This document shows, piece by piece, positions 1,117-63,095 of a DNA stretch of 64,000 bases. The position numbers and the translations under genes are program-made. Below the pieces are notes generated by a model that was not told the DNA's origin, did not search any database, and worked only from the letters and a program-made list of their open reading frames with translations. Origin of the DNA: Rhodamnia argentea (Eukaryota; Streptophyta; Magnoliopsida; Myrtales; Myrtaceae); assembly GCF_020921035.1 (NCBI RefSeq), contig NC_063156.1, forward strand, positions 10,490,501 through 10,554,500. Direction: 5' to 3'. Every line of letters starts with the position of its first letter. The first letter of the stretch is position 1.

Positions 1117-2307
1117 ATGGTGTTCAATCTCAGATCCTTCAGTTTCACCGAGTCCATCGAAGATGATCCCCCATCACCTCCTAAAAGCTTCTCTCTAAAA
1201 GAGCTCCGAGTTGTGACACACGACTTTAGCAGAGACAACGTCTTGGCCGCAGGTGGATTTGGAAAGGTTTCCCAGGGGCGCTTGGCTGATGGTTCTCTTA
1301 TGGCGGTAAAAAGAGCTCGCACAGTCGATCAATGTAGCAAAGAGCAGTTCGAAACAGAAGTTCAAGTGGGTCGCTCAGTTTCAACGCACCCAAATGTGCT
1401 AAGGTTGAGGGGCTTTTGCAGGACCAAGAAAGAGCTTTTACTAGTGTATCCCTTGATGATCAACAACAGCCTACCTTACAATCTTCTAGAGAGACCGGAT
1501 CGGTGTGCCCGACCTCTCGATTGGACCAGTCGCAAGCGAATAGCCTTGGAGGCAGCAAGGGGGCTCGCTCACCTTCACACTCAAGGTGACATCAAGATCA
1601 TGCATCCCTACATCTGCGCGGCAAGTGTACTGCCGAATGTGCAATTCGAGGCCATGATAGGGAGTTTCTGCACTGCCGTGATCATGCATGAGAGGAATGC
1701 TGGGAAAGGGACTATCGAGTGGCGCACGCGCACGCCAAGACGTGGCACAGGAATCTCATTCTCCTCCCCATTAGAAGAAAATTCAGCTGATTCTGGCTTC
1801 GATTCTCAAATCTATCATCGCTACAAAAATGTTTATGTGGACACCATCGCCTGCGGCATAGTTGGGTTTACTGCCTCCAAGTACTCCTACACATGAAAGT
1901 GCACGCTGAAAAATGATGTCTTCGCATATGGGAAAATGCTTCTCAAGGTCATCTCGGGACAACCGATTTTTTATTTTTTCCCCTGAGGTACCCGATGGCG
2001 AAGCTTCTGGTTAGAGGATCGGGTTAGAAAGCACATGAATGAAGGCCAGCTGGGAAGGGTGATCGATCCCAATTTGCTGGGGAACTTTGTGGAAGAAAAA
2101 GCAGAGCGACTAGCCCGATTGGCATTGTTGTGTACACACAAGGATCCATCTGTTCGACCAGAGATGTCGGAAGTGGGTCAAATGCTTGAAAGCCAATTTC
2201 TTCAATGTGATACTAGTTCAAGGAGTAGTTGGAGTCAAAGTGAGTATGACTCAACTCCATAGTACTCTTTCCCTCCTTCTCCTTCTCCTCAGGGGATTGC
2301 TCCATGA
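1117..2307 (+). pseudogene. K1, SERK-like cytoplasmic kinase pseudogene
   Basis: A 397-codon frame runs from ATG 1117 to TGA 2305-2307 without a frameshift but with three premature stops: TGA at 1894-1896 (a GGA glycine codon in the other copies), TGA at 1984-1986 and TAG at 2260-2262 (TAC tyrosine elsewhere). The start is set by homology at the MVFNL motif, although the frame stays open upstream to 1015. The N-lobe is well preserved (AAGGFGKV glycine loop, MAVK lysine), but the catalytic loop reads MHPYICAAS instead of HRD and the DFG position reads SFC, so it was already a pseudokinase before the stops. The activation-segment insertion and the tail beginning SSRSSWSQSE are present. It could still be transcribed. 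Confidence 0.85.
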
Positions 2308-3260
2308 CTGGCATGTCAATGCTACATCTTCACCGTTGCCTTTTACCTTCAATAACGAGTTCAGCTTATGTGTCTCTTCTTGAACTCTACATGTTCCTCT
2401 TCACTTTCATTTGGTGATAAGTACACCATGAGTACCATAACTTGTGTACAGCGTTCACTTGAGTGCCATAACTTTTAAAACGTCACTTAGGTGCCACAAC
2501 TTTAAAAAATCGTTCACTTAAGTGCCATGTCGAAATAAAATCGTTCACTTGAGTGCTACACCAACTTTTCTGGCGAGTCACATCAACTTTTCCGGCGTCC
2601 ACGTTAGCATGGCACTCAAGTGAATGATTTTTGAAAGTTATGGCACTTAAGTGAACGTTTTAAAAATTATAGCACTCAAGTGAACGCCGTACAAAAATTA
2701 TGGCATTTCTAGTGTACTTTTCTCTTTTCATTTGTATGATCTTTCTATAATACTTTCCTCCAATGCAATGACTGCTATCTTATTGTAGGCTCTAGTTGGC
2801 ACTTTTAAAATCGGTATACACTTTCCACAATTTACACCTACACGGGCCATTCTGCGGAATCTCCATTTCGTCTTAATTTAGTAGATTATCTCCTAATGGC
2901 AAGAGGCAATGACCAGAGTGCCGACATTATTAGCCTTAACCTCATTCAAAAAATCAAGAGATGCATAGTACGATTCTTTGCATCTACACCTCTCTCGAGC
3001 TTTCACTAGCTATCACCGAGTTGGGAAATGAGGATCTCAATGCTAAATGTCGTGTTTTGCAAACGGATCGTGCACTCGTGAGTGGTTTTAATGACGCATT
3101 TAATTGTGTGGTTGTGCATTGCAACCGATTTTAAAAGATGAGGGACATTGTCAGTTCGAGATTTTTGTGGGATGATAATTACTTTGTGGTAAATGTATAA
3201 TGGGTACCAAGTTAGAATTTTTTATGGCATGAATCCCCAAATTTAATCGATTCGACACGG
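2308..3260 (+). repeat. Duplicated 3' flank of the kinase unit (K1)
   Basis: This DNA recurs, diverged, behind several kinase copies (about 17020-18087, 30401-31147, 36330-37700, 52373-52954 and 55101-55350). Shared landmarks are 'gtcaatgctacatc' just after the stop, 'attgtgtggttgtgcatt' and 'cattgcaaccgattttaaaagat'. It marks the unit of tandem duplication. No gene is supported in it. A MITE sits at 2414-2725. Confidence 0.6.
2414..2725. mobile_element. Mutator-like MITE with 9-bp target duplication
   Basis: A 312-bp non-coding element with long terminal inverted repeats: the left end 'aagtacaccatgagtacc' pairs with the reverse complement of the right end, and the arms share 'gttcacttgagtgc'. 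It is flanked by the direct repeat TTTCATTTG at 2405-2413 and 2726-2734, and the flanking K1 3' DNA reads through cleanly if the element and one repeat are removed. A 9-bp duplication is typical of Mutator-type insertion. The superfamily is inferred from that length only. Confidence 0.75.
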
Positions 3261-7987: not shown

Positions 7988-8790
7988 AGAAATGGAAGTT
8001 TCAAGCGGGTTTCTGTGCATCCAAACGAGCTTTTGCAGAACAGAGGACGAGCTTTTACTGGTCTATCCTCCTTGCCTAGCTTATGATCTTAGAGAGAGAC
8101 CGATCGGCCGAGCGGCCGAGCCCACGGGGGCAGCAAAAGGGATTGCGGTCCTGCATGATCCAGGTTAGGCTAAGATCGTGCATTGGGACATTTGTGTAAC
8201 AATCTGGAGGCTGTGATTGGAAATTTTGGATTGGCAATGATCATGCATGAGAGGAACATGGAGGATGGGGACTATTGAATGGCACACCCCGAAGCGCCTC
8301 ATGGGATTCTTGTCCTCTGGCCGAGGAGAAGATTCTTTAGATGCTGACTGTTGTTCTCAAACCTATCAAGATGTTTATGTCAGCAAACTCAACACCATTG
8401 CCTGTGGCAGAACGGGTTTATTGCGCTGGTGCACCTCCACACAGGAAATTGCAGACTGTATGATGTTCTCGGCTACCGGAACATGCTTCCAGTGCTCATC
8501 TCTGGACAGCAAACCTTCAACCTTGATCAGCTACAGGGTTAGCAGATGGATGAAGGAGAATGAATTGGAGAGAGTGATCCATCCACCAATTTGCTCTTGG
8601 AACAATGCAAAAGGAGCAGAGGAACTAGTCCGAATGGATTGTTGTGTTCGGCTTGCAGTCCATCTGTCCGTGCCGAGATGTCTGGGGTGGTTAAAATGCT
8701 AGAAAAATCTAGTCCATGGGCGGGATCCTAATAGCAGTCGATTCGAGTCCTTCACTGGAGATCACTCCATGAGTGGCACTGCACGCTAAC
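7988..8790 (+). pseudogene. K2, decayed SERK-like kinase fragment
   Basis: Homology to the kinase family starts in the N-lobe just before the 'gtgcatccaaacgagc' region and runs to the tail, in several frames. Recognisable pieces are the 'ctggtctatcc' hinge region, a DFG-region segment that reads as EAVIGNFGLAMIMHER, and the activation-segment insertion. The glycine loop, start codon and much of the C-lobe are lost or scrambled. The NFG at the DFG site is an intermediate between the DFG of K7 and the NFW of K10 and K15. This is the oldest-looking large copy in the array. Confidence 0.75.
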
Positions 8791-11191: not shown

Positions 11192-11358
11192 ATGGTGTTC
11201 AATATCTGTCCGACCCGAGATGTCAGAAGGTGGTTATGATGATCGAAAGCCAAATGCTTGGGCAGGATCCTAGCAGCGGGAGCGATTGGAGTGGAGGCGA
11301 GTGTGATTCAACTCCTTACTATCCCTTCCCTCCTCCTCTCTCGATGGATATATGCTAA
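11192..11358 (+). pseudogene. K3, internally deleted kinase remnant
   Basis: The family start (atggtgttcaat) is joined directly to the 3' part of the kinase gene beginning at the segment that encodes SVRPEMS in other copies, so about 1 kb of gene is missing. The junction has only a few shared bases (atct). The tail region is readable, ending near a TAA at 11356-11358, but in a different frame from the ATG. This is a deletion derivative, not a small gene. Confidence 0.8.
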
Positions 11359-13577: not shown

Positions 13578-14683
13578 ATGGTGTTCAATCTCCGAACCTT
13601 CAGTTTTACCGAGTCCGATGAAGACGATCCAACACCTCCTAAAAGCTTCTCTCTAAAGGAGCTCCGAGTTGCGACGCACGACTTTAGCCATCGCAACGTC
13701 GTGGGCGGAGGTGATTTCGGCATGGTTTATCGGGGACACTTAGCCGACGGTTCTCAAGTGGTAGTAAAGAGAGCATTCATTATCGACCAAGAAAGGGAAG
13801 AGAACTTTGGGAGGGAGATGCAAGTGGCGAGATCGGTGTCGACACACCCAAACGTGGTTAGCCTGAGGGGCTTTTGCAGGACAAAGAGAGAGCTTTTGCT
13901 GGTCTATCCCTTGATGATCCACAACAGCCTCGCTTCTAATCTTGGGGCACAATCGGAACGGCCGACCGGACCTCTCGATTGGACAACTCGCACACGCATA
14001 GCCTTGGGAGCAGCCACAGGTTTAGCGCACCTGCACGATCAAGGTAATTTCAGGATCATGCACCGCCACATTTGCCCACATAGTATATTGCTGAACTCGC
14101 AATTTGAGGCGGTGATAACAGGTTTCTGCTCTTCCGTGATCATGCACAAGAGAAATGTACAGGGGCGGACTATAAAGTCCCAGGTAGAAGATTCAGTTGT
14201 TTCCGGCTCCAGTTCTCAAACATATCATTGCTATGACGATGTTTATGTTGACAACCACATCCACGGTGTGAATGGGTTCATTGCCCCAGAGTACAGAAAC
14301 ACAGGAAAGTGCACACTGAAGAACGACGTTTCGCCTACGGGAGAACGCTTCTTGGGCTCGTCTCTGGACAGGCGACTGGGAACCTTTTTCCGCCGGTGTT
14401 CGGCAAACATATTATTAAGAACGAGTTGAAAATGTTGATCGATCCCCAATTGCAGGGAAACTACGTGGAAAAGGAAGCAGAGGGACTAGTCCGGTTGGCA
14501 TTGTTGTGCGCACATGAGAATCCATCTGTTCGACCAGAGATGTCTGAAGTGGTTCGAATGCTCGAAAGCCAGTTTCTTCAGCGGGACACTAGTTCAAGGA
14601 GTAGTTGGAGTCAAAGCGAGTGTGACTCAACTCCGTACTACTCTTTCCCTCCTTCTCCTTCTCCTATGGGGATTGCTCCCTGA
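13578..14683 (+). pseudogene. K4, SERK-like pseudokinase with one frameshift
   Basis: The frame from ATG 13578 is open for 250 codons and then shifts by one missing base at about 14329, where other copies read 'gatgtcttcgca' and this one 'gacgtttcgcc'. The +1-shifted frame continues with normal family sequence to TGA at 14681-14683. The glycine loop reads VGGGDFGMV and the VVVK lysine is present; the catalytic loop reads MHRHICPHS (Asp lost) and the DFG site GFC. The insertion (about residues 190-225) and the SSRSSWSQSE tail are kept. With only one lesion it may be a very young pseudogene or an assembly error. Confidence 0.85.
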
Positions 14684-15882: not shown

Positions 15883-17019
15883 ATGGTGTTCAATCTCCGA
15901 ACCTTCAGTTTTGCTGAGTCCATCGAAGATGATCCAACACCTCCTAAAAGCTTCTCTCTAAAGGAGCTCCGAGTCGCGACAGACAACTTTAGCAGCAACA
16001 ACATCGTGGGGGACGAGTGGGGCAGCAAGGTTTACAGTGGGCGCTTAGCCAATGGTTCGATAGTGGCAGTAAAGAGAGCAAGCTTTGTCAATCAGTGGAG
16101 CCAGAAGGAAGTCGAAGCAGAAGTGCAAGTGGGAAGCACGGTTTCGATACACCCAAACGTGCTACACCTGAGGGGCTTTTGCCGGACCAAGAAAGAGCTC
16201 TTAATGGTGTATCCATTGATGATCAACAACAGCCTATCTTACCATCTTACCGAGAGACCGGATACGTTTGCCTGACCTCTCGATTGGACAACTCACAAGC
16301 GGATAGCCTTGGGAGTAGCGAGGGGGCTTGCACACCTTCACAATCAAGGTAACATCAAGGTCATGCATCGCCACATCTGCGCGTCAAATAGACTGTTGAA
16401 TGTTCATTTTGAGGCCGTGATAGGAGGGCTTTCGGTTGCCATAATCATGCATGAGAGAAATGTAGAGGAAGGGACTATTGAGTGGTCCACGTGGTCAGCT
16501 GATTCGGGCTCCCATTCTCGATCATATCATCGCTATGAAGATGTTTACGTCAACGCCCCCTTCTGTGGCAAACTTGGGTTTATTGCCCCGGAGTACCACA
16601 TTACAGATAAATGCACACTGAAGAATGATGTCTATGCATACGGGAAAATGCTTCTCGAGCTCATCTTGGGACAACCAATTTACGATTTCAGGGAGCTACT
16701 CAGTCGTGAAGCTTTCCGGCTGGAGGATGGGCTTAGAATACTTATGAATGAAGGTCAGCTAGGAAGGGTGATCGATTCCAATTTGCAGGGGAATTACGTG
16801 GAAGGAGCAGCAGAGCGGCTGGTACAATTTGCATTGTTGTGCACATATGAGGATCCATCTTTGCGACCAGAGATGTCTGAAGAGGTTTGAATGCTCGAAA
16901 GCCAGTTCCTTCGTAGGGATCCTAGTTCAAGGAGTAGTTGGAGTCAAAGTGAGCGTTACTCAACTCCGTGCCATTCTTTCCCTCCTTCTCCTTCTCCTCC
17001 TTTTGGGATTGCTCCATGA
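15883..17019 (+). pseudogene. K5, SERK-like pseudokinase with two stops
   Basis: A 379-codon frame (ATG 15883 to TGA 17017-17019) with no frameshift and two internal TGA stops, at 16273-16275 and 16888-16890. Both replace CGA arginine codons of the family, the change expected from decay of methylated CpG. The glycine loop is lost (VGDEWGSKV), VAVK is kept, the catalytic loop is MHRHICASN and the DFG site GLS. The tail beginning SSRSSWSQSE is intact. It is closely related to K6, which shares the first stop at the same codon. A partial product from the first 130 codons would contain only part of the N-lobe. Confidence 0.87.
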
Positions 17020-22526: not shown

Positions 22527-23614
22527 ATTTTGTTCAATCTCCGAACTTTCAGTTTTACCGAGTCCGTCAAAGGTGATCCAACACCTCATAAAATATTCTC
22601 TCTAAGGGAGCTCCGAGTCGTGACAGACAACTTTAGCAGCAACAACATCATGGGGAACAATTATAACCGCAATGTTTACAGGGGGCGCTTGGCCGATGGT
22701 TCACAAGTTGCAGTAAAGAACTGTGTCGATCGGTGGAGGGAAAAGAAGTTCGAAGCAGAAGTTCAAGGGGAAGCACAATTTCAACGCTCCAAAATGTGCT
22801 ATGCCTGATGGGCTTTTGCAGGACTAAGAAAGACCTCTTACTGATGTATCCCTTGATGATCAACAATAGCCTATCTTCCAATCTTACAAAGAGACCGGAT
22901 CGATTTGACTGACCTCTCGACTGGACAACTCGAAAGCATATAGCTTTGGGAGTAGCGAGGGGGCTTGCACACCTTCACAATCAAGGTAACATCAAGATCA
23001 TGCATCGCAACATCTGTGCGTCAAATATACTGCTGAATGTTCATTTTGAGGCTGTGATAGGAGGATCATTGCTTGCCATGATCATGCATGAGAGAAATGT
23101 AGAGGAAGGGACTATTGAAAGGCCCATGTTGTCAGCTGATTCTGGCTACAAAGATGTTTATGTCAAGACCCCCATCCGTGGCACTGCTAACTTTATTGCC
23201 CCCGAGCTCTTCTCCACAGGAAAGTGCACACTGAAGAATGATGTGTCTGCATATGGGAAGATGCTTCTTCAGCTCATCTTGGGACGGCCGCTTCATGTTG
23301 AAGTTGGCGAAATCTCGTTGGAGGATTGGATTGATAAACATATGAATGAAGACCAGTTGGGAAGGGAAATCGATTCCACTTTGCAGGGGAACCACATGGA
23401 AGAAGAAGCAGAGCAACTAGTCCAATTGGCATTATCATGCGCACAATGGGATGCATCTGCTCGACCAAAGATGTCTTAAGTGGTTCGAATGCTCGAAAGC
23501 CAGTTTCTTGAGCGAATCCCTAGTTCAAGGAGTAGTTGGAGTCAAAGCGACTGGGACTCAACTCCGTACTACTCTTTCCCTCCTTCTCTTTCTCCTCTGG
23601 GGATTGCTCCATGA
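22527..23614 (+). pseudogene. K6, SERK-like pseudokinase, broken
   Basis: The start codon is lost (ATT at 22527 where others have ATG), one base is missing near 22771, and stops lie at 22910-22912 (CGA to TGA) and 23477-23479 (GAA to TAA). The homologous sequence ends at TGA 23612-23614. The glycine loop is gone (MGNNYNRNV), the catalytic loop is MHRNICASN and the DFG site GSL. The activation-segment insertion is shorter than in its relatives. The 22910 stop is at the same codon as the first stop of K5. The SSRSSWSQS tail is readable. Confidence 0.85.
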
Positions 23615-25241: not shown

Positions 25242-26387
25242 ATGGTGTTCAATTTCCGCATCCTCAGTTTCTCCGGTGCTACTCGAGAAGTTGGAAGGAC
25301 GGTTGATAATACCGGTAATCAACTCCGAAGGTTCTCTCTCATAGAGCTTCAAGTGGCGACAAGAAACTTCGACCACGAAAACTGGTTGGGTGAAGGATCG
25401 TTTGGAGTGGTCTACAGAGGACGCTTAGCCGATGGTTCTCTCGTCGCCGTAAAACGACTGAGAGAGCTTTCCGAAGATTCGGAAAGACAGTTTCAGACAG
25501 AAGTGGAAGTGGCAAGCATTGTTCACCACCCCAACTTGTTGTGCCTGATAGGGTATTGCAATGTGGAGAAAGAGCGGTTGTTGGTCTACCCCTTCATGGT
25601 CAACCGCAGTCTCGACTTCCTCTTGAGACAGAAAGCCTTCCAACCACTCGATTGGCCAATCCGGATGCGGATAGCATCAGGAGTCGCGAGGGGGATGGCT
25701 CACATGCACGATCAATGCCATCCGAGCATCATACACCGCGATGTCAGTTGTTCAAACATATTGCTGAATGCGGACTTCAAGCCAGTAGTGGGAGACTTTG
25801 GCTTGGCCAGGATCATGCATGAGAGGGACATTGTGGTGGGGAATGCCGGAGGCTCCATCGGCTGCGGCTCGGTTTCTGCAGCTGAAGTGGGTAAACATCC
25901 GCCTTTGTTGCCCATATCACCTCAGTTGTACCAAGATACTTATGTCTACACCGCCGTGCGTGGACATATAGGATACGGCGCCCCCGAGTACATAAGCACT
26001 GGCAAATGCACTCGGAAGGTTGACGTCTATTTATATGGAAACATGCTTCTGGAGCTCATCTCAGGACGGCCATTTTTTCACTTCAGTGGGCTACGGAACG
26101 ACTGGATTAGCAGATGTATGAACGAGAACATGTTGAAAAGGGTGGTTGATCCAACTTTGCAGGGGAACTATCTCCCCGAAGAAGCAGAACGACTCGTCCG
26201 ATTGGCACTGTTATGTGCGGATGACGATCCATCTGTCCGACCCAAGATGTCTGAAGTGATTTTGTTACTTGAAAACCGATTGCACGGGCCGGATCATAGC
26301 AGTAGGAGTAGTTGGAGCCAAAGCGAGTGTGATTCGACTCCTTACTACTCTTTTCCTCCATCTCCTTCTTTGGAAATGGCTATATGA
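25242..26387 (+). CDS. K7, SERK-like cytoplasmic protein kinase
   Basis: A 381-residue intact frame, the copy closest to SERK/BAK1 kinase domains (FSLIELQVATRNF, RLLVYPFM, GNYLPEEAERLV). Nearly all catalytic elements are present: glycine loop GEGSFGVV at 50-57, Lys71 in VAVK, alpha-C Glu87, HRD at 165-167 with Asn172, DFG at 185-187 and APE at 247-249. One exception is Ser169 where Ser/Thr kinases have Lys (HRDVS). There is no signal peptide, LRR or membrane helix, so the protein should be cytosolic. A 36-residue insertion (about 193-229) lengthens the activation segment, and the tail from 353 reads SSRSSWSQSE followed by a YYSFPPSPS end. SERK genes have introns in this region, this gene none. 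It is the likeliest active enzyme of the array; activity itself is inferred. Confidence 0.9.
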   Translation: MVFNFRILSFSGATREVGRTVDNTGNQLRRFSLIELQVATRNFDHENWLGEGSFGVVYRGRLADGSLVAVKRLRELSEDSERQFQTEVEVASIVHHPNLLCLIGYCNVEKERLLVYPFMVNRSLDFLLRQKAFQPLDWPIRMRIASGVARGMAHMHDQCHPSIIHRDVSCSNILLNADFKPVVGDFGLARIMHERDIVVGNAGGSIGCGSVSAAEVGKHPPLLPISPQLYQDTYVYTAVRGHIGYGAPEYISTGKCTRKVDVYLYGNMLLELISGRPFFHFSGLRNDWISRCMNENMLKRVVDPTLQGNYLPEEAERLVRLALLCADDDPSVRPKMSEVILLLENRLHGPDHSSRSSWSQSECDSTPYYSFPPSPSLEMAI

Positions 26388-28644: not shown

Positions 28645-30293
28645 TCTTGTCTCACCATGCAATTTGTAGTGAATTAACGCGGAATCTAGTAGATTTTGCC
28701 GAAAGACAAGAAATTAAGTAAGAGAGGCTGTTGTTAATGAGTATGTGGCTCGTTTAATCAGCTAAGTAGATTTGCAAAGAACATTGTTGTGGAAGAAAAA
28801 GACAAGGTTGATCACTCTGAGCAAGGGCTCAAACCCGAGATTTGCTCAAGCCCTTCTTCTCACTCGGTGACTACCTGCACGTAAGTGTTCTGGAGAGAGC
28901 AATCAAAGTTGACCAGAGCAGACAACATTAGAAATCAGTGGATGAAATAATCTAACTCTTTCACATAACGGCAACCCTCTGACGCAATAGAGTCATAACT
29001 TCGGATGCATGTGACTTCTAAGTTTCTATATCCAATTTAGGGGCTGTTAAGCTATGAAAGTTTTTGGACCAAAAAAAAAAAAAAGCTATGAAAGTTTGGA
29101 CCAAAAAAAAAAAAAAAGCTATGAAAGTGAAAAGCATAGTATAGGGTGTTATGGAGCCGTGTGCTTTTACAGAAGTCGATTCAGAGATACGATTTGGTCG
29201 AGATAGATGTTCAAAGTTTCGCATGTATTGCTTTCAAGTTCTGACTTTCTGTTTTTTGAGACGCTTTCCGACCGTCTTCGGTCATCTTTGAGCCAGTGAA
29301 GTTTAAGATCTGTTAGTACTTTTTTGTTTTTCCCCTATCTCAGTGATCTTCTAGTACTTCCAAAGTGTTTTTTCTTTTTACCGTAAACCCAGTTGATTCG
29401 AGTTCGGTAGTAAGAGATATGACGAGGGACATTTTGTCGTGCGAGTGGCCGCTCGTCGGGGTAGTTGTTATTTGTTGCGAATGGCCATTCTTGATGTCTT
29501 TTGCCGACCCGTAGTGCACGATTTGACTTCGAAATAGCTTCACCTTGTCGAGTTTACAAGGAAGATGAACTCATATCGAGTACTTTTGTCTCTTCCAATA
29601 TTGGGTCAACACTAACTCCAGGAAGATCTAATAGAAGTATATCATGATTTATTTATTTATTTGCAGTATCGATTGACTACATGTTTTATGTCTGTATCAT
29701 ATGATAGTTTGTTAATGCATTTGTCTCTTGTTTACGAGGCTTGTCCATTAAAAAGAAATTGAGAAACAAATAATGATCTAAAATTAATACGAGAAATTCC
29801 CACTGATACAGAAAATTTTTCCATTGCAATTGCAGTATGATCAATCAACACATAACGCACGTGTTCCAAGTACGAGTAACTAGAAGTACGGATCTTAAGG
29901 ATACCAAAAAGTGGATAACTTTTCCATGTAATGTGCAACAGATGTAGTAAAGAAATAGGACTAGTACTCTTCAATTTTGGATTCTTCAATGTGTGGGAAT
30001 CCAATAATTACCAGGAGAATCATGCCAAAGTTAGGAAGCTTTGAGGCAATGAAACCTTTCTCGCTCTCATCTTTCCACGAAGCTGCTCACAGCAAGGCAA
30101 TGAATCCAACGACTTTTCCTACCATTTCATTCATCCACGTCAACCAAAAGCAGTCGTCGGTGAGACCCGCACAATCCCAACTGTGTTGTAGAAAAAAACT
30201 GTGTGAACAAAGCAAGTCTCTTCGGATATCCAGAAGGTGCTCCCAAACCAATCACCACCAATCGAGAGAAACCATCAAGCTTATACCAATGAA
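28645..30293. other. Region between solo LTR and K8
   Basis: The first part continues the K7 flank ('gtgaattaacgcggaatct'). A short tandem repeat lies at 29051-29128. About 29580-29640 and 29700-29900 repeat the distal 5' flank of the kinase genes, including a CACGTG G-box at 29858-29863, and about 29990-30290 is the leader of a kinase gene whose body is missing (K8). The open frames here are not convincing. Confidence 0.45.
29051..29128. repeat. Tandem repeat of gctatgaaag plus poly(A)
   Basis: Two copies of 'gctatgaaagttt..ggacc' followed by 14 to 15 A, then a third partial 'gctatgaaagt'. The pattern fits two successive, severely truncated retroposon insertions (ggacc plus poly(A)) at one site, each duplicating the target 'gctatgaaagt'; slippage of one insertion is the alternative. 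Confidence 0.6.
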
Positions 30294-33975: not shown

Positions 33976-34016
<41 letters not shown>

Positions 34017-35192: not shown

Positions 35193-36329
35193 ATGGTGTT
35201 CAATCTCCGAACCTCCAGTTTTACCGAGTCCGATGAAGACGATCCAACTCCTCCTAAAACCTTCTCTCTAAAGGAGCTCCGAGTCGCGACACACGACTTT
35301 AGCAGCAACAACATCGTGGGGCAGTATTGGGACGCTGTGGTTTACAGGGGACGCTTGGCCAATGGTTCGCTAGTGGCAGTAAAGAGAGCGCACTGTGTCG
35401 ATCCCCAGAAAAAAGAGGAGTTCGAAGCAGCAATGAAAGTGGGAAGCACAATTTCGAGGCACCCAAACGTGCTATGCCTGAGGGGCTTTTGCAGGACCAA
35501 GAAAGAGCTCTTGCTGGTCTATCCCTTGATGGTCAACAATAGCCTATCTTACCATCTTAGAGAGAGACCGGATCGGTTTGCCCGACCTCTCGATTGGACT
35601 ACTCGCAAGCGGATAGCCTTGGGAGCAGCGAGGGGGCTTGCACACCTTCACAATCAAGGTAACATCAAGGTCCTGCATCGCGACATCCGTTCATACAATA
35701 TACTGCTGAACGAGCATTTTGAGGCCGTGATAGGAGGATTTGCGCTTGCCATGATCATGCACGAGGGAAATGTAGAGACTGTTGAGTGGCGCACGGGTTC
35801 AGCCGATTCTGGCTCCGATTCTCCATCCTATCAACCCTATGAAGATGTTTATGTGGAGAGCACCGTCCGTGGCGTACTTGGGTTTATTGCCCCCGAGTAC
35901 TTCTGGACAGGAAAGTGCACACTGAAGAATGATGTATTTGCATACGGGAAAATGCTTCTCGAGCTCATCTCGGGAAAGTCAGTTCAGAAACCTTTTTCGT
36001 CGGCGGATGGTGAAAATCTCACTTTTATGGAATGGATTGGTGGTTTTCTGAACGAGAACGAGTTGGGAAGGGTTATCGATCCCAATTTGCAGGGAAATTG
36101 CGTGGAAGAAGAAGCAGCGCAACTGATCCGATTGGCATTGTCGTGCGCACATGAGGATCCATCTGTTCGACTGGAAATGCCTGGAGTGGTTGGAATGCTC
36201 AAAAGCCAGTTTCTTCAGCAGGACCCTAGTTCAAGGAGTAGTTGGAGTCAAAGTGAGTATGACTCAACTCCGTACTACTCTTTCCCTCCTTCTCCTTCTC
36301 CTCCTTCTCCTCAGGGGATTGCTCGATGA
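35193..36329 (+). CDS. K9, SERK-like pseudokinase (open frame)
   Basis: An intact 378-residue frame. Kinase fold features are clear (FSLKELRVATHDF at 24-36, Lys64 in VAVK, LLLVYPLM hinge region, APEY at 233-236, GNCVEEEA helix), but catalysis should fail. The glycine loop is reduced to VGQYWDAV (42-49), the alpha-C Glu is Ala80, and DFG reads GFA (182-184); HRD (162-164) and Asn169 survive. The activation segment carries a Ser/Asp-rich insertion (about 190-215, GSADSGSDSPS) and the tail from about 346 reads SSRSSWSQSE with a Pro-rich end. No signal peptide or membrane segment. The middle third (residues about 80-220) is almost identical to K14 while both ends differ. Likely role: scaffold or decoy rather than enzyme (inference). 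Confidence 0.85.
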   Translation: MVFNLRTSSFTESDEDDPTPPKTFSLKELRVATHDFSSNNIVGQYWDAVVYRGRLANGSLVAVKRAHCVDPQKKEEFEAAMKVGSTISRHPNVLCLRGFCRTKKELLLVYPLMVNNSLSYHLRERPDRFARPLDWTTRKRIALGAARGLAHLHNQGNIKVLHRDIRSYNILLNEHFEAVIGGFALAMIMHEGNVETVEWRTGSADSGSDSPSYQPYEDVYVESTVRGVLGFIAPEYFWTGKCTLKNDVFAYGKMLLELISGKSVQKPFSSADGENLTFMEWIGGFLNENELGRVIDPNLQGNCVEEEAAQLIRLALSCAHEDPSVRLEMPGVVGMLKSQFLQQDPSSRSSWSQSEYDSTPYYSFPPSPSPPSPQGIAR

Positions 36330-38610: not shown

Positions 38611-39756
38611 ATGGTGTTCGACCTCCGATCCTTCAGTTTCGAAGATGATGCCCCTCCTCCTAAAAGCTTCTCCCTAAAGGAGCTCCAAGTCGCCACACAC
38701 AACTTTAGCCGAGACAACTTCTTTAGCGAACGTGTATACGGCACGCTTTACCGGGGGCGCTTAGCCGATGGTTCTCCGGTGGCAGTAAAAAGAGCACGCA
38801 CCGTCTTCGAATGCAGCGAGGAACAGTCCGAAACAGAAGTTCAAGTGGGACGCTCAATTTCAGCGCACCAGAACGTGCTACGCCTGAGGGGCTTTTGCCA
38901 GACCAAGAAAGAGCTGTTACTGGTCTACCCCTTGATGATCAACAAGAATCTAAGATATCATCTTCGACTTAGACCGGATCGGTCCACCCAACCTCTCGGT
39001 TGCACAACTCTTATGCGCATTTCCTTGGGAGCGGCTAGAGGTCTCGCACACCTACATAATCAAGGCAATGTCAAGATCATGCACTGCGACATTTGCATGT
39101 CAAGTATATTCCTGAATGAATGATTTGAGGCCGCGATAGGGAATTTTTGGCGTGCCCTTATAATGCACGATGGAAATGCAACGGAAGGGACTATTCAATG
39201 GCCCGTGAGAGTCTCCTCCTCATCCCAAGGAGAAGATTCAGCTGATTCCGATTCCGATTCTCCAACCTATCGTCTCTATGAAGACGTTTATGTGGACACC
39301 ACCTATGCTGACGGCAGAGTCGAGTTTATTGCCCCGGAGTACCTACACACAGGAAAGTGCACACTGAGGAATGATGTTCACGCCTTTGGGAAAGTGCTTC
39401 TTGAGCTCATCTCTGGACAGCCACCTGCAAAACATGAAGCGCTGCCTTATGGCGAAAATCTCAGTTTGGCGGAATGGATTGGTGGATTTATGAGCAAGAA
39501 CGAGTTGGGAAGATTGATTGATCCCAATTTGCGGGGGGACTATGAGGAAGAAGAAGCAGAGCAGCTACTCCAACTGGCATTATTGTGCGCAGATGGCGAT
39601 CCATCTATCCGACTGGAGATGTCTGAAGTGGTTCGAATGCTCGAAAGCCAATTGCTTGGGCAGGATCCTAGCAGTAGGAGCAGTTGGAGCCAAAGCGAGT
39701 GTGATTCGACTCCTTACTACTCCATCCCTCCTTCTCCGTCGGAAATGGCTTTATGA
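38611..39756 (+). pseudogene. K10, SERK-like pseudokinase with one stop
   Basis: A 382-codon frame without frameshift, interrupted by a single TGA at codon 171 (39121-39123) where its near-twin K15 has CGA. Glycine loop FFSERVYG, VAVK lysine kept, catalytic loop MHCDICMSS, DFG site NFW: a pseudokinase apart from the stop. The insertion is long and acidic (SSSSQGEDSADSDSD) and the tail is intact. Gene and 0.9 kb of 3' flank are nearly identical to K15 from about its codon 35 on. The single CpG-type change suggests recent loss; another allele could be open. Confidence 0.87.
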
Positions 39757-42522: not shown

Positions 42523-42967
42523 ATGGTGTTCAATCTACGAACCTTCAGTTTCTCCGAGTCCAGTGAAGAGGATCGAGTGCATCCTAGAAGCTTCTCCCTA
42601 AAAGAGCTCCGAGCTGCAACGCAGAACTTTAGCCGCCACGACTTCTTCGCGGAAGGTGGATTCGGTGCGGTTTACTGGGGACGCTTAGCGGACGGTTCTG
42701 TCATGGCAGTGAAAAGAGCAACCGCCCATGATCAAGAGAGCGAAGAGGCTTTTGAAAGAGAAGTGCAAGCCGCAAGCTCGGTTCGGGCACACTCAAACAT
42801 GCTACGTCTGAGCGGCTTTTGCAGGACCAAGAAGGAGCTTATCCTGGTCTATCCCTAGATGATCCATTACAGCCTTGCCCATTGTGGTAGAGAGAGACCG
42901 GATTGGTCGCCCCGACCTCTCGATTGGATGACTCGCAAGCGTTTAGCCTTGGGAGCAGCAAGAGGTC
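42523..42967 (+). pseudogene. K11, 5' part, split by a LINE
   Basis: The N-lobe of a kinase copy with a good glycine loop (AEGGFGAV) and MAVK lysine. A TAG at 42856-42858 replaces a TTG leucine codon, after which family sequence continues to GAARGL at 42967, where the poly(A) end of a LINE on the - strand begins. The rest of the gene resumes at about 48594. Confidence 0.85.
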
Positions 42968-43015
42968 TTTTTTTTTTTTTTTTTGTCGGAATGGAAATAA
43001 CTTCATAGCGAAAAC

Positions 43016-48593: not shown

Positions 48594-49150
48594 CGGCTGC
48601 ACAATCAAAGTAATGTTAGGATCATGCCACGCCGCTTTTGCCTGTCAAGTATGTTGCTAGCTGTCCTAGTTAAAAAGGCTGAGACAGGAGGTTTCTACAG
48701 TGCGGACATCGTGGACGAGAGTAAATCAGAGAAGGGAATATCGAGTGGAGCATGCTCAAGGACGATGTTTTCGCCTTTGGCAAAACTCTTCTCCACCTTA
48801 TCTGCGTACAGAAGAGCACGGAGTTTGGTCTGCTAGCAGATGAAAATCTCAGTTTGGAAAAATGGATTAGCCAGATGATGAACGAGAACAAGTTGGAAAG
48901 TGTGATTGATCCTAGCTTGTGGGGGAACTATGTGGAAGAAGAAGCAAAGCAACTAGTCCAATTGGCATTGTTGTGTGTGGATACTAATCCATCAGTCCAA
49001 CCCGATCTGTCTCGAGTAATCAGAATGCTCGGAAACCAATTGCTCAGGCAGGAGCAGGATCTCAGCAGTCGGCACAGTTGGAGTAGAAACAGTGATTCCA
49101 CCAATTACTACTCTTTCCCTCCTTCTCCTTCATCCAGAATTGCTCTCTGA
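48594..49150 (+). pseudogene. K11, 3' part
   Basis: Resumes at the codons for LHNQSNVRIM and runs, after the loss of the activation-segment region near 48750, into a C-lobe frame (DDVFAFGKTLLHLI onward) with a variant tail (SSRHSWSRNSDSTN, YYSFPPSPSS) and a stop at 49148-49150. The catalytic loop reads MPRRFCLSS. Together with 42523-42967 it forms one interrupted gene that had already lost key residues. Confidence 0.83.
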
Positions 49151-51052
49151 CAGGCACAGCGATACTACATCTGGATCAACCTTCTTTCATATTCAGCATC
49201 ATCTTCCGCTTCCACTGACTCCGCTAATCTTGTGTTATGTGTTTCATGTAAGGATTGCAAGCTTCTGAGCGAAATCGATAGTAAGAATTCAAAAGACATT
49301 AAAAAAAGGCGACGATTTAGCCTATCTGAGTATCTGTGAATGAATGTCAAACTACGTGTAGTTATCACCAAATATCAGTAAGTCAATTTTCAAATTCTTC
49401 AAAGCGCAGGGCCCTCAACTAGCATATCGATATGTTAAGTATACTTTTACACTATGTAAAATGTTTTTCAGGGATGTAAGTGAAACTTAACTACCATGGG
49501 GGATAAATTGACTTGATCCTTGTGCTCTGTACTCCTGGACGACTAATTCATCCGTGCTTTTTCCCTTTTTTGGCAACGCAAGTTTTCTTCCGAGACGACT
49601 TTTGCAAAGCCGTCGTGATCGACAATGAGGGAGGACAACTCAACTGCTGAGAATTAGACTTGTTAGCGTTTTTTATGTTGAGGACAATGTAGACACTTAG
49701 CGCCTAGAGGCGGAGGCGAATTCGCGAGACTTGGCTTTCAAGTAGTTTTAAGTTTGTGACCAGACATGGTTGTATTTGTGGATGAGAAATTGAAGGAGGA
49801 GATCATGCGGGGAGGGAGGGAAGCAAATTATGCAATGGTGCTAGTAAACATGTCATCTTCACCTCACTTGCCAGTTGATGGTTTTCCTGTGGCAGGGAAT
49901 TCAGGTTTGTCCATGATTTTCATATTCGAACGCTTGGATCTTTCACCTTACGAGACTTTTAAATTAGCATTGGCAGAGGACCTTTGCAGTGGCCATTTAT
50001 AGATGAAATTTTTGTCTCTGGACCTTATGCGGTCAACTCAATCTATAGTGGGAGTATGCAATGAAGCAGAGAAAAACCTCCCAGGCGGGCATTGTGCTTC
50101 CTGTTAGATTGATTTTTTTTCTTGGTTTTTTAATGAATTAAAGATTAATCGACCTCGTATATGTTTCGACTTGATTAATGTTTTGGCGATTCGTTGGTGG
50201 AAATCATCCCTTTGGCTCATTGCAACCACTTTTAAAAAATTAGGGTCATTACCGGTTTGAGATTCTTGTGAGACTATAATTAGTTCAGGGTCTATATATC
50301 ATGAATACCAATTTGAGATTATTTTATGGTATTAATCCATAAAATTAATCAATTTAGTACTCTTTCCATGCGAGTTCCATCTAACAAGAGGTTCAACTTC
50401 ACTAATGCACATGCAACTGATAAAAGCCCAAGTGAGAATATGATGACTCCTTATCCTATTTAACCTAATGGGCAACAAATTTATCCTTAGTTTTACTAGT
50501 AATCTTAGTATGCGCAGTCCTTTTGAGTAAATTGATATTTCTTGAGCTCATAGAACATAAATGGAACCATTCAAAATGATCGGAGTGGGCATTGAGATTT
50601 TTAATTTATCCATTATAAGCACTTTACCAGTATAAAAACAGAAAAAAAAAAATGAAGAAACCAGTACGTTGTAAGCATATGTGTAGAAAATAAGGCCGAA
50701 AATGGATTCAGCACGTCGAGATAACTTTGGAACCGATCACAAAGCGCCAAAAACCAGTTGAAGAGTGCACGAACAGGCTAGAAATGGGAAAAAAAATCAG
50801 TCTAGCCGGTTTGATTTGAACTGGTCATTGGTCGATCAGTGCAAGTCAATGGTTAGTCAACGATCAATGGTCTTCGGTCAACAGTCAGGGGCGATGTGGC
50901 GGATGACGTGGCGACTTGCTAGTGCGGCAACACATGTGGTGAAGGATGTTGTTTTGTGGACATGTCGGATGACGTCACTGATGACGTGCGTAACACCTGC
51001 AGTAGAGGTCACACATCAGCACACGGATGTCACTCTCAATATGCTGGCGTGT
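49151..51052. other. Intergenic region between K11 and K12
   Basis: About 49900-50050 resembles the 'gcagaagacctctg' module behind K7, K10 and K15. About 50080-50620 matches 37420-37980. About 50770-51020 is GC-richer and carries a cluster of TGACGT hexamers and GTCAA/GGTCAA motifs. No supported gene; the frame at 49766-50002 has no recognisable relatives. Confidence 0.4.
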
Positions 51053-51357
51053 GACGACAATCTCGGTTTGGAAGGATGGATTGGTGGATTTATGAAAGAA
51101 GAACAAGTTGGGAAGAGCGATCGATCCCAATTTGCAAGGAAACTAAGTGGAAGAAGAAGTAGAGCGATTAGTCTGATTAGCATTGTTTCGCACAGATGGC
51201 GATCCATCTGTTCGACCGGAGACATCTGAAAATGTTAGAATGCTCGAAAACAAACTCCTTTGGGCAGGATCATAGCAGAAGGAGCAGTTGGAGTCCAAGC
51301 GAGCACGATTCAACTCCTTACAACACTTTCCCTCCTCCTTCTCTTCATGGGAAATGA
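51053..51357 (+). pseudogene. K12, 3' kinase fragment
   Basis: Begins with the GLEGWIGGFM segment of the C-lobe and continues, out of frame in places, through a decayed 'gatggcgatccatctgttcgacc' block to the tail and a TGA at 51355-51357. The first two thirds of the gene are missing. It resembles the K10/K15 subgroup. Confidence 0.75.
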
Positions 51358-52272
51358 GGAAAATTGCATAGGAAGTCTTAAAATTTTCAATTATTTCAAT
51401 CAATTCCTAAGTCTTCTTTAAAATGTACAATCAAGTCATTTCGATTAAAAAAAAAAATTAAAATTGCCTAAGTGTCACCTAAAAAGATACTTATGCTAGA
51501 TCGTCAACTTGCATTTTTCAATTTATGACTTCATTGTATTTTTCGATAAAGATTTATAAACCTATTAAAAATTTTAAAACCCGATTGCACTTTTTGATGA
51601 AGGTTAGGGCTCAATAACATCCGGTAGATAAGGTTTAAGACTTGAACGGCGACTTTCCCTTGGACATACTTTAAAACCTTCTTTTTTTAGGGTTCTCCTT
51701 TCCTTACATTTATATGTTTGTTCCACTTTTGTTTCAATGATCTTTCTTTTATGGCACACTCGTCTCTGTAATAGTGTGAGACGGCTCACTTCTAGATTGT
51801 TCTAGAATAGTGAAATGGTGGGGTTGAGGTTCTCGACTCTATTTCAAAGAATTGGCCAATAATGACCACTTTTCTTCAAAAGCTATAAATTGAAAGAGTT
51901 ATTCAAAGTGCTGCCTCTTAATCTATCATGCTAATTGAACGAGTCATCCGCCTCTCCATTTATGCGTTTCCACGCTTTATTCTTAGATCAATCTGACCCT
52001 TTGTGTGAGGTGGCAAGAACCCCGTCTTCGCGTGAGGGTGAATAGGTCAACCACCGTGATCCATCTACTTTTGATGCAACAAAATGATATGTTCTATTGC
52101 CGCAAAAAAAAAAAAAAAAAAATATTGATAAAAAAAATAATTAGATGAATAGCTTCGGTTAGAGCCTCTTTTTTTTTACATCTATTATGCCCCCAAATTG
52201 TTAGACCTATTACCCAAGAAAAAAATTCCAAATTTAACTCTTGTTCCAATTTTACATTTTTTTTCTTCAATG
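51358..52272. other. Intergenic region between K12 and K13
   Basis: AT-rich. A foldback-type 'caattcctaagt' repeat stretch occupies about 51380-51620. A 21-bp A run lies near 52106. About 52125-52265 matches positions 1-130 of the window (left arm of the foldback element). No gene. Confidence 0.4.
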
Positions 52273-52372
52273 GGATCCTTGTTCAAGGAGTAGTTGGAGT
52301 CAAAGTGAGTATGACTCAACTCCGTACTACTCTTTCCCTCCTTCTCCTTCTCCTCTGGGGATTGCTCCATAA
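52273..52372 (+). pseudogene. K13, solo tail fragment
   Basis: Only the last 33 codons of a kinase copy are left, the SSRSSWSQSE region through the Pro-rich end, with TAA at 52370-52372. Upstream it is fused directly to a piece of foldback element, downstream the normal unit flank follows. Confidence 0.78.
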
Positions 52373-58377: not shown

Positions 58378-59505
58378 ATGGTGTTCAATCTCCGAACCTT
58401 CAGTTTTGCCGAGTCCGTTGAAGACGATCCAACTCCTCCTAAAACCTTCTCTCTAAAGGAGCTCCGAGTCGCGACACACAACTTTCGCAAAGACAACATC
58501 GTGGGGGAAGGTGTATTCAACATAGTTTACCGGGGGCGCTTGGCCGATGGTTCGCTAGTGGCTGTAAAGAGAGCGCGCTTTGTCGATCAACTGAGCAACG
58601 AGCTGTTCGAAGAAGCAATGAAAGTGGGAAGCACAATTTCGAGGCACCCAAACGTGCTATGCCTGAGGGGCTTTTGCAGGACCAAGAAAGAGCTCTTGCT
58701 GGTCTATCCCTTGATGGTCAACAATAGCCTATCTTACCATCTTAGAGAGAGACCGGATCGGTTTGCCCGACCTCTCGATTGGACTACTCGCAAGCGGATA
58801 GCCTTGGGAGTAGCGAGGGGGCTTGCGCACCTTCACAATCAAGGTTACATCACGATCCTGCATCGCGACATCTGTTCATACAATATACTGCTGAACGAGC
58901 ATTTTGAGGCCGTGATAGGAGGATTTGCGCTTGCCATGATCATGCACGAGGGAAATGTAGAGGAAGGGGCTATTGAGTGGCGCACGGGTTCAGCTGATTC
59001 TGGCTCCGATTCTCCATCCTATCAACCCTATGAAGATGTTTATGTCGACACCGACCTCTGTGGCACACATGGGTTTATTGCCCCCGAGTACTTGTGCACA
59101 GGACAGTGCACACTGAAGAATGATGTCCATGCATACGGGAAAATGCTTCTCGAGCTCATCTCGGGACAGTCAATTTTGGAACTTAATAAGTTGGCGCATT
59201 TTCAAAATCTCAATCCGGCCGAATGGATTGGTAATTTTCTGAACAAGAACGAGTTGGGAAGGGTACTCGATCCCTATCTGCTGGGGAACTACGTGGAAGA
59301 AGAAACAGAGGGACTAGTCCGGTTGGCATTGTTGTGCGCACATGAGGATCCATCTGTTCGACCAAAGATGTCTGCGGTGGTTCGAATGCTCGAAAGCCAG
59401 TCTCTTCAGCGGGACCCCAGTTCAAGGAGTAGTTGGAGTCAAAGCGAGTATGACTCAACTCCGTACTACTCTTTCCCTCCTTCTCCTCAGGGGATTGCTC
59501 CATGA
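58378..59505 (+). CDS. K14, SERK-like pseudokinase (open frame)
   Basis: An intact 375-residue frame. The glycine loop is partly kept (GEGVFN at 43-48, third Gly replaced by Asn), with Lys64 in VAVK, HRD at 162-164 and Asn169; DFG reads GFA (182-184), so metal binding and normal catalysis are unlikely. The catalytic-loop Lys is Cys (HRDIC). The activation-segment insertion (about 190-217) contains GSADSGSDSPS, APEY follows at 235-238, and the tail from about 348 reads SSRSSWSQSE with a YYSFPPSP end. No signal peptide or membrane span. K14 and K9 are paralogs with a nearly identical centre. Enzyme-dead signalling partner is the most likely role (inference). Confidence 0.86.
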   Translation: MVFNLRTFSFAESVEDDPTPPKTFSLKELRVATHNFRKDNIVGEGVFNIVYRGRLADGSLVAVKRARFVDQLSNELFEEAMKVGSTISRHPNVLCLRGFCRTKKELLLVYPLMVNNSLSYHLRERPDRFARPLDWTTRKRIALGVARGLAHLHNQGYITILHRDICSYNILLNEHFEAVIGGFALAMIMHEGNVEEGAIEWRTGSADSGSDSPSYQPYEDVYVDTDLCGTHGFIAPEYLCTGQCTLKNDVHAYGKMLLELISGQSILELNKLAHFQNLNPAEWIGNFLNKNELGRVLDPYLLGNYVEEETEGLVRLALLCAHEDPSVRPKMSAVVRMLESQSLQRDPSSRSSWSQSEYDSTPYYSFPPSPQGIAP

Positions 59506-61937: not shown

Positions 61938-63095
61938 ATGGTGTTCAATCTCCGAACCTTCAGTTTTGCTGAGTCCGTTGAAGATGATCCAACTCCTCCT
62001 AAAACCTTCTCTCTAAAGGAGCTCCGAGTCGCCACGCACAACTTTAGCCGAGACAACTTCTTTAGTGAACGTGTATTCGGCACGCTTTACTGGGGGCGCT
62101 TAGCCGATGGCTCTCTAGTGGCAGTAAAAAGAGCACGCACCATCTTCGAATGCAGTGAGGAGCAGTTCGAAACAGAAGTTCAAGTGGGGCGCTCAGTTTC
62201 AGCGCACCAGAACGTGCTGCGCCTCAGGGGCTTTTGCCGGACCAAGAAAGAGCTTTTGCTGGTCTATCCCTTGATGATCAACAAGAACCTACGATATCAT
62301 CTTCGACTTAGACCGGATCGGTCCACCCAACCTCTCGGTTGGACAACTCGCATGTGCATCGCCTTGGGAGCAGCTAGAGGTCTCGCATACCTACATAATC
62401 AAGGCAATGTCAAGATCATGCACCGCGACATTTGCACGTCAAGTATATTCCTGAATGAACGATTTGAGGCCACGATAGGGAATTTTTGGCGTGCCCTTAT
62501 CATGCACGACGGAAATGCAAAGGAAGGGACTATTCAATGGCCCGCAAGAGTCTCATCCTCATCCCAAGGAGAAGATTCAGCTGATTCCGATTCCGATTGT
62601 CCAACCTATCGTCTCTATGAAGACGTTTATGTGGACACCACCTATGCCAACGGCAGAGTCGGGTTCATTGCCCCGGAGTACCTACACACAGGAAAGTGCA
62701 CACTGAGGAATGATGTTCACGCCTTTGGGAAAGTGCTTCTTGAGCTCATCTCTGGACAGCCATCTGCAAAACTTGAAGCGCTGGCTTATGACGAAAATCT
62801 CAGTTTGGAGGAATGGATTGGTGGATTTATGAACAAGAACGAGTTGGAAAGATTGATCGATCCCAATTTGCAGGGGAACTATGTGGAAGAAGAAGCAGAG
62901 CAGCTACTCCGACTGGCATTATTGTGTGCAGATGGCGATCCATCTGTCCGACTGGAGATGTCTGAAGTGGTTCAAATGCTCGAAAGCCAATTGCTTGGGC
63001 AGGATCCTAGCAGTAGGAGCAGTTGGAGCCAAAGCGAGTGTGATTCGACTCCTTACTACTCCATCCCTCCTTCTCCGTCGGAAATGGCTTTATGA
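61938..63095 (+). CDS. K15, chimeric SERK-like pseudokinase (open frame)
   Basis: An intact 385-residue frame. Codons 1 to about 33 match K14 (MVFNLRTFSFAESVEDD), and from about codon 35 on it follows K10 (NFSRDNFFSERVFG). Lys64 and alpha-C Glu80 are present and HRD (162-164) is intact, but the glycine loop is SERVFG, the catalytic-loop Asn is Ser169 and DFG reads NFW (182-184). The activation-segment insertion is the most acidic of the open copies (SSSSQGEDSADSDSD at 206-220). The tail from about 358 reads SSRSSWSQSE and ends PSEMAL. Cytosolic by absence of signal or membrane segments. Probably a catalytically dead signalling protein (inference). Confidence 0.86.
   Translation: MVFNLRTFSFAESVEDDPTPPKTFSLKELRVATHNFSRDNFFSERVFGTLYWGRLADGSLVAVKRARTIFECSEEQFETEVQVGRSVSAHQNVLRLRGFCRTKKELLLVYPLMINKNLRYHLRLRPDRSTQPLGWTTRMCIALGAARGLAYLHNQGNVKIMHRDICTSSIFLNERFEATIGNFWRALIMHDGNAKEGTIQWPARVSSSSQGEDSADSDSDCPTYRLYEDVYVDTTYANGRVGFIAPEYLHTGKCTLRNDVHAFGKVLLELISGQPSAKLEALAYDENLSLEEWIGGFMNKNELERLIDPNLQGNYVEEEAEQLLRLALLCADGDPSVRLEMSEVVQMLESQLLGQDPSSRSSWSQSECDSTPYYSIPPSPSEMAL

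What the first reader, a model, noticed from the sequence alone, without database searches (positions are those of the whole stretch)
1117..63095. Tandem array in which each SERK-like kinase copy has lost DFG in its own way
Reading the DFG position across copies gives DFG (K7), NFG (K2), SFC (K1), GFC (K4), GLS (K5), GSL (K6), GFA (K9, K14) and NFW (K10, K15). The VAVK lysine is kept in every copy that covers it, whereas the HRD region varies (MHPYI, MHRHI, MHRNI, MHCDI, HRD). Three of the four open copies are DFG-less. Open frames of full length without catalytic residues suggest selection for a non-catalytic role rather than simple decay.
Basis: partly seen in the sequence, partly recalled or inferred. 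Interest (0 to 1): 0.75.

Follow-up and report, generated by a model that had tools for sequence, protein, structure and literature searches.

The report
Tandem array of non-catalytic SERK-like kinases
A plant chromosome carries a row of copied kinase genes that lost key catalytic residues early, yet several stayed intact while the face that would hold ATP and substrate changed fastest, which fits bait or partner proteins better than dead enzymes.

Summary
Observation confirmed: 16 intronless BAK1/SERK-like kinase stretches (about 15 copies), all on the + strand, nine near full length. Every DFG and HRD reading in the finding is right, the VAVK lysine is kept in 10 of 10 copies that cover it, and K7, K9, K14 and K15 are open.

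Interpretation partly supported. 'Each lost DFG in its own way' is not: one or two early losses of the Asp suffice, and the HRDxK lysine is gone from 11 of 11 copies covering it, K7 included. A selected non-catalytic role is supported: internal branches have omega 0.49 (p 2.5e-6 against 1), about two thirds of codons sit near 0.25, and scaffold and C-tail are conserved. But no open copy's own branch is significantly below 1. Gly-loop, DFG, P+1 loop and alphaF-alphaG segment change fastest. Positive selection there is strong under standard and recombination-aware models but not once synonymous rates vary among sites (p 0.12). Copies recombine; K15 is a chimera.

Best reading: a birth-and-death array of soluble SERK-derived pseudokinases, possibly decoys, comparable to ZRK and Pto families but from another kinase family. 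Species, expression and orthologs are unknown.

The parts
1117..2304 (+). K1, near full length, SFC, HPY; in-frame stops
   Evidence: two stops counted plus one in an unaligned insert
8031..8735 (+). K2, decayed partial copy, NFG, HWD
   Evidence: six frameshifts, one stop
11205..11334 (+). K3, C-terminal fragment
13578..14680 (+). K4, near full length, GFC, HRH; one frameshift
15883..16992 (+). K5, near full length, GLS, HRH; two stops
22527..23611 (+). K6, near full length, GSL, HRN; frameshift, two stops, start codon ATT
25242..26387 (+). K7, open frame (381 aa), DFG and HRD kept but HRDVS in place of HRDVK; of the two copies searched against the PDB the closer to BAK1
30288..30404 (+). K8, C-lobe fragment
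35193..36329 (+). K9, open frame (378 aa), Gly-loop GQYWDA, HRDIR, GFA
38611..39756 (+). K10, full length with one stop (39121), NFW, HCD
42523..42975 (+). K11, N-lobe only, one stop
48600..49132 (+). K12, fragment from the catalytic loop to the C-tail with an internal deletion and a frameshift; PRR for HRD, GFY for DFG
51002..51336 (+). K13a, C-terminal fragment with stops and frameshifts
52265..52369 (+). K13b, C-tail fragment
58378..59505 (+). K14, open frame (375 aa), GFA
58504..58521 (+). K14 Gly-loop GEGVFN, hypervariable segment
58858..58884 (+). K14 catalytic loop LHRDICSYN
58921..58932 (+). K14 GFAL at the DFG position
58954..59028 (+). K14, most of the Ser-rich/acidic insert in the activation segment, absent from BAK1
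59050..59073 (+). K14 P+1 loop TDLCGTHG, hypervariable segment
59170..59208 (+). K14 alphaF-alphaG segment, hypervariable
59419..59502 (+). K14 C-tail; its first 22 residues are among the most conserved stretches of the array
   Evidence: (0.5% of circular shifts as low)
61938..63095 (+). K15, open frame (385 aa), NFW; K14-type 5' end joined to K10-type body

Best explanation
A birth-and-death tandem array of soluble, intronless pseudokinases derived from the kinase domain of a SERK/BAK1-like receptor. Shown by sequence: catalysis-related residues (HRDxK Lys, DFG Gly, and DFG Asp once or twice) were lost early; much of the fold, both tails included, stayed under purifying selection on the internal branches; copies duplicate with their flanks and recombine; the ATP- and substrate-facing segments changed fastest. 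Inferred: the proteins act by binding, with scaffold and C-tail as the constant part and the former catalytic face as the variable part. The most likely single use is as decoy or bait for foreign proteins that grip the kinase face of SERK-type receptors, perhaps guarded by an NLR elsewhere. The figure below is for the statement as a whole, decoy as favoured but not only use.
For: Internal-branch omega 0.49, LRT 22.1, p 2.5e-6. M0 omega 0.66, below 1 with 2dlnL 29.8; about two thirds of codons at omega about 0.25 in segment-tree models. Neutral simulation: P(open) at most 0.002 at 0.055 subs/site. Of 71 positions identical in BAK1, PBL2, SYMRK and FERONIA, 13 of 14 catalytic-motif ones changed in 2 or more of 8 copies against 17 of 57 others (p 2e-5; grouping made after seeing the table). 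Gly-loop, HRD loop, DFG and P+1 set (27 columns): mean amino-acid difference 0.64 against 0.35 overall, and only 1 of 375 circular shifts, the unshifted one, is as high (motif sets fixed in the script, but after searches had pointed to them). Position 1+2 to position 3 ratio 1.13 on a 41-codon face set, 0.69 in the rest of the domain, 0.27 in the C-tail. M1a-M2a 2dlnL 56.7, and 40.6 with six segment trees plus multi-hit rates. K9/K14 coding DNA 10.4% diverged against 3.7% and 3.2% in adjoining flanks, without a frameshift. Precedents: ZED1 carries Trp at the DFG Gly and Asn in HRD (PMC6634424, passages); AvrPto and AvrPtoB bind the Pto P+1 loop and target the FLS2-BAK1 complex (PMC3561153, passages).
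Against: With site-varying synonymous rates plus multi-hit rates, omega above 1 is not significant (2dlnL 4.1 and 4.2, p 0.13 and 0.12), so relaxed constraint on the face is not excluded; the 95% interval of the face ratio, 0.91-1.43, includes 1. Own branches of open copies: K15 0.33 (p 0.08), K9 1.38 (p 0.28), K14 2.17 (p 0.06). At 0.02 subs/site a neutral frame stays open with probability 0.065-0.078. Recombination (59 of 126 K9/K14 differing sites have both states elsewhere, chance of a match 0.24) can imitate selection, and several tree nodes have support of 48-58. In K10/K15 the face stands out little (7 of 82 at positions 1+2 against 26 of 510 in the rest). The catalytic loop by itself is not unusual (rank 0.23). 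Far 5' DNA of K9/K14 is 10.2% diverged, so the low flank values may be the outlier. No NLR seen among the ORFs read by eye. No expression, ortholog, population or binding data.
Confidence: 0.5

Rival explanations
1. Young pseudogenes: a kinase array that duplicates and dies, the open frames being the newest copies and the variable motifs unconstrained drift.
For: 5 of 9 near-full copies carry lesions, few each; K9/K14 dN/dS 1.1; K6 branch omega 1.15, and none of the K9, K14, K15 branches significantly below 1; at 0.02 subs/site 6.5-7.8% of neutral frames stay open; K9 lacks 28 bp upstream that include a TATA-like stretch in K14.
Against: Internal branches omega 0.49; K1 branch 0.45, p 0.0001, K5 0.59, p 0.03, K10 0.52, p 0.046, all in copies now disabled; C-tail and much of the scaffold conserved; neutral survival very unlikely at 0.055 or more subs/site; none of 2 indels between K9 and K14 coding DNA is out of frame, against 19 of 23 in the far 5' DNA.
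Confidence: 0.2
2. Regulators of the plant's own SERK/BAK1 signalling: soluble pseudokinases that compete with SERK kinase domains for receptor partners, without any pathogen.
For: Nearest solved relative is BAK1; alphaE, hinge and beta2-beta3 conserved; the pseudokinase BIR2 is a negative regulator of BAK1-mediated defence (PMC7158045, passage).
Against: An endogenous partner would be expected to keep its docking face constant; here Gly-loop and P+1 loop change fastest. No membrane segment or Gly after the start Met seen by eye (no predictor was run).
Confidence: 0.2
3. Only K7 matters: an active cytoplasmic SERK-like kinase, the others being its decaying side branch.
For: K7 keeps Gly-loop, Lys, Glu, HRD and DFG and scores higher than K14 against BAK1.
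Against: K7 lacks the HRDxK lysine and carries a 36-residue activation-segment insert; it is far from the rest (dS 1.19 or more), which evolved under constraint as a separate group.
Confidence: 0.1

Closest known systems
SERK/BAK1 receptor kinases (LRR-RLK subgroup II)
   Same: Kinase domain, best match BAK1 3tl8/3uim
   Different: No ectodomain or membrane segment in the frames, no introns in the kinase region, catalytic residues lost, activation-segment insert, different C-tail (the last as I recall the BAK1 tail)
ZRK / RLCK XII-2 pseudokinase cluster with ZAR1 (ZED1, RKS1/ZRK1)
   Same: Genomic cluster of kinases most of which appear to be pseudokinases; ZED1 also has Trp for the DFG Gly and Asn in HRD (PMC6634424, PMC9539561, passages)
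   Different: Nearest solved relative here is BAK1; no NLR partner known; here the catalytic face itself is hypervariable
Pto-like kinases with Prf
   Same: Kinase gene family in which MEME, but not FEL, IFEL or SLAC, found selected sites, two in the activation domain (PMC4990186, passages); P+1 loop is the main effector contact (PMC3561153, passages)
   Different: Pto is an active kinase and needs activity for effector-dependent signalling (PMC3561153); the copies here are not expected to be active
DRIK1 and BIR2 plant pseudokinases
   Same: Non-catalytic; DRIK1 has an altered P-loop and DLE for DFG (PMC7158045, passages)
   Different: As I recall they are conserved orthologs, not tandem arrays

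Membership tests
SERK family | Kinase domain closest to SERKs | tested here: met
   Among solved structures BAK1 is the top match of K7 and K14 (310 and 267 bits against 195 and 163 for the next protein); not tested against all plant kinases
SERK family | 11 exons with conserved boundaries, signal peptide, zipper, five LRRs, SPP, transmembrane segment (PMC3061892, passage) | tested here: not met
   Single-exon frames; an in-frame stop lies one codon before the start Met in K4, K9, K14 and K15; no ectodomain in the frames
Pseudokinase | Loss of at least one of the beta3 Lys, HRD Asp, DFG Asp | tested here: met
   DFG Asp absent in 8 of 9 near-full copies (all but K7)
Pseudokinase | No catalytic activity of the protein | not testable with these tools
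   Needs an assay; beta3 Lys and HRD Asp are kept in K9, K14 and K15
ZRK / RLCK XII-2 | Sequence kinship with ZED1 or RKS1 | tested here: inconclusive
   PBL2 of entry 6j5t (the ZAR1 complex, recalled) was found but no RKS1 chain among the 60 rows shown; no direct comparison made
ZRK / RLCK XII-2 | Partnership with the NLR ZAR1 | not testable with these tools
   No genome or interaction data
Pto-like kinases | Closest kinship with Pto | tested here: not met
   2qkw/3hgk, listed as 'Protein kinase' and Pto as I recall, score 137/136 bits for K14 against 267 for BAK1, and 166 against 310 for K7

The most novel reading that the evidence does not exclude
A variable-face / constant-tail repertoire: a SERK kinase domain turned into a family of soluble baits whose former catalytic cleft and P+1 loop are diversified by recombination and selection, while scaffold and C-tail (the output part) stay fixed, so that effectors aimed at the central co-receptor BAK1 meet many decoys.
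Probability: 0.3. Interest if true: 0.75.

Novelty: new variant of a known kind. Interest (0 to 1): 0.5.

Why it matters
Kinase and pseudokinase families such as Pto and ZRK are known plant immune sensors. A tandem decoy-like family made from SERK, the shared co-receptor of growth and immunity, with its catalytic face as the fastest-evolving part, would make it testable whether loss of catalysis in pseudokinases is a step toward a recognition surface, and would point to the kinase surfaces on which pathogens press.

Tried and rejected
Tried: a search of the window's own genome returned an error because no genome is held for it, so orthologs and population data were out of reach. AlphaFold2 of K14 on 12 window sequences gave mean pLDDT 54.8, too poor for surface mapping, so no fold search was run and 'face' rests on motif names, not coordinates. 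A dual-rate codon model removed the significance of omega above 1 on one tree and on segment trees; reported as evidence against. Branch tests of single copies: K14 omega 2.17, p 0.06; K9 1.38, p 0.28; K15 0.33, p 0.08, so no open copy's branch departs significantly from 1. With four copies (K9, K14, K10, K15) M1a-M2a 2dlnL is 14.9; with open copies only 29.6, but 6.1 (gap-free columns) once multi-hit rates are allowed.

Rejected: many independent DFG losses; alignment artefact (signal stays in columns more than 6 from a gap, 2dlnL 20.6); recombination alone (stays with segment trees); chance similarity. Considered but untested: that the activation-segment insert is a retained intron of a partly spliced retrocopy; AtNIK1 also has a single exon for exons 9-11 (PMC3061892, passage), so intronlessness does not prove retroposition. 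Rows dropped: codon work used 8 copies (K7 added where said); K2, K3, K8, K11, K12 and K13 were left out as partial. In one search the row labelled 'K' is the Arg after the VAVK lysine; the lysine itself is. The DFG Asp is not among the 71 invariants because the SYMRK chain carries Asn there. The 41-codon face set was chosen after and includes alphaF-alphaG and post-APEY columns seen to vary there.

Print check: ten searches listed no paper whose title or abstract start describes a SERK-derived pseudokinase array; four of these lists were cut, and the library holds open-licence papers only.
Full report
What is there. Tblastn with four window frames and BAK1, followed by frame-aware alignment, gives 16 kinase stretches on the + strand between 1117 and 63095. 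Nine are near full length (K1, K4, K5, K6, K7, K9, K10, K14, K15), K2 is a long decayed partial, K11 is an N-lobe, and K3, K8, K12, K13a and K13b are 3' pieces. K7, K9, K14 and K15 are open; K10 has one stop, K4 one frameshift, K5 two stops, K1 two stops plus one in an unaligned insert, K6 one frameshift, two stops and an ATT start. The nine near-full copies align without an intron; SERK genes have 11 exons, although AtNIK1 has one exon for exons 9-11 (PMC3061892, passages). The nearest solved proteins are BAK1 chains for both copies searched, K7 and K14. The motif readings in the finding are correct.

Order of loss. On the tree of eight copies (K7 as outgroup) the reconstructed ancestor has the three Gly-loop Gly, alphaC Glu and HRD Asp (0.93 to 0.998), a Cys in place of the HRDxK Lys (0.997), and hardly a Gly at the DFG Gly (0.008); the DFG Asp is undecided (D 0.53, G 0.37). 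Codons at the Asp are GAC in K7, AAT in K10 and K15, AGT in K1, GGT/GGG/GGA in the others; leaving third positions aside, D-N, N-S, S-G and D-G are single-base steps. One or two losses are enough. The HRD Asp went later, in K1, K4, K5 and K6. K7 lacks the HRDxK Lys too, so an active K7 is not a given. These reconstructions use one tree, with several nodes at support 48-58, although the copies recombine.

Selection on the frames. M0 omega for the eight copies is 0.66, below 1 with 2dlnL 29.8, and internal branches are at 0.49 (2dlnL 22.1, p 2.5e-6). Of terminal branches K1 (0.45), K5 (0.59) and K10 (0.52) are below 1 at p under 0.05, all now disabled copies; K15 (0.33, p 0.08), K4 (0.69, p 0.08), K6, K9 and K14 are not. 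Neutral simulation with the indel rate of the far 5' flank gives P(open) for K9, K14 and K15 of 0.065-0.078 at 0.02 substitutions/site, 0.010-0.015 at 0.035, 0.0005-0.002 at 0.055 and 0 of 4000 at 0.1. So the frames were kept by selection for most of their history since the family spread, but recent neutrality of the open copies is not excluded. K10/K15 has dN/dS 0.37, K9/K14 1.1, at about equal dS (0.12, 0.11).

Where change is concentrated. The Gly-loop, catalytic loop, DFG+1 and P+1 loop (27 columns, taken by motif name but after searches had pointed there) have mean amino-acid difference 0.64 against 0.35 over 375 columns; only the unshifted position of 375 circular shifts is as high. Single sets, with the share of shifts as high: alphaF-alphaG 0.79 (0.008), Gly-loop 0.80 (0.027), P+1 0.67 (0.059), DFG+1 0.71 (0.072), catalytic loop 0.46 (0.23); low ones: beta2 0.10, C-tail 0.11, VAVK 0.12, alphaE 0.15. 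Across 275 columns shared with four other plant kinases, array variability still rises with ordinary variability (Spearman 0.27), so conservation is not inverted overall; the exceptions are the catalytic motifs: 13 of 14 such invariants changed in two or more of eight copies against 17 of 57 other invariants, a grouping made after seeing the table.

Positive selection or release. Site models favour a class with omega about 3 (M1a-M2a 2dlnL 56.7; M8a-M8 55.7). It holds in gap-free columns (42.6), far from gaps (20.6), in open copies (29.6), on a star tree (66.2), and with multi-hit rates and separate trees for 6 or 10 segments (40.6, 37.0). With multi-hit rates on one tree it is 28.7, and 6.1 (p 0.048) in open copies; with synonymous-rate classes added it is no longer significant (4.1, p 0.13; 4.2, p 0.12). 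Positions 1+2 against 3 give 1.13 (0.91-1.43) on a 41-codon face set, 0.69 (0.59-0.80) in the rest of the domain and 0.27 (0.07-0.57) in the C-tail. The safe statement is that the face evolves at about or above the neutral ratio while the rest is constrained.

Recombination. Duplications carry flanks. K15 has K14-type DNA upstream and at its N-terminus and K10-type DNA after it. K9 and K14 share a 197-bp identical run while the six codons after their first Gly-loop Gly differ at 14 of 18 bases, and 59 of 126 differing sites have both states in other copies (chance of a match 0.24). K9/K14 coding DNA differs by 10.4%, its flanks by 3.7% and 3.2%, but DNA further 5' by 10.2%, so either the coding patches are fast or the flanks were recently made alike. 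K10/K15 differ by 6.0% in coding DNA and 2.3% in the 3' flank.

Mechanism. Constant scaffold and tail, variable cleft and P+1 loop, no membrane anchor seen by eye and no expected catalysis suggest a binding protein. In Pto the P+1 loop is the main contact of AvrPto and AvrPtoB, which also target the FLS2-BAK1 complex (PMC3561153, passages; [quoted passage not shown] ZED1, a pseudokinase in a genomic cluster, has Trp for the DFG Gly as K10 and K15 do, and works with an NLR (PMC6634424, PMC9539561, passages). By analogy I favour a decoy, as inference. No NLR was seen among the ORFs read by eye; only ten proteins were scanned against Pfam.

Verdict. Observation confirmed, interpretation partly supported, a new variant of a known kind (tandem pseudokinase cluster) from an unexpected parent family. 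The species, expression and orthologs are the missing evidence.

Noticed in passing
9130-10749 +: Long frame with a full DUF247 domain (E 5e-116), a plant gene family, lying inside the kinase array.
   Followed up: partly
43505-48416 -: LINE-type element in several frames: DUF4283, zinc knuckle and endonuclease by Pfam, RT-like and RNase H-like parts by eye only (one such frame had no Pfam match); a second piece with zf-RVT at 53709-54335 +.
   Followed up: partly
18142-18516 +: Frame resembling a copia-type RNase H end (judged by eye).
   Followed up: no
35141-35195 against 58311-58380: K9 lacks 28 bp just upstream of the start that in K14 include a TATA-like stretch.
   Followed up: partly
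25821-25928 (K7); 58954-59028 (K14): An insert of about 19 to 44 residues (my count) sits at one place in the activation segment of the nine near-full copies and not in BAK1; might be a retained intron of a retrocopy (untested).
   Followed up: no
31533-33968 vs 55381-57879; 33327-33973 vs 59970-60623: Upstream DNA of K9, K14 and K15 is shared, so the duplication units are larger than the genes.
   Followed up: partly
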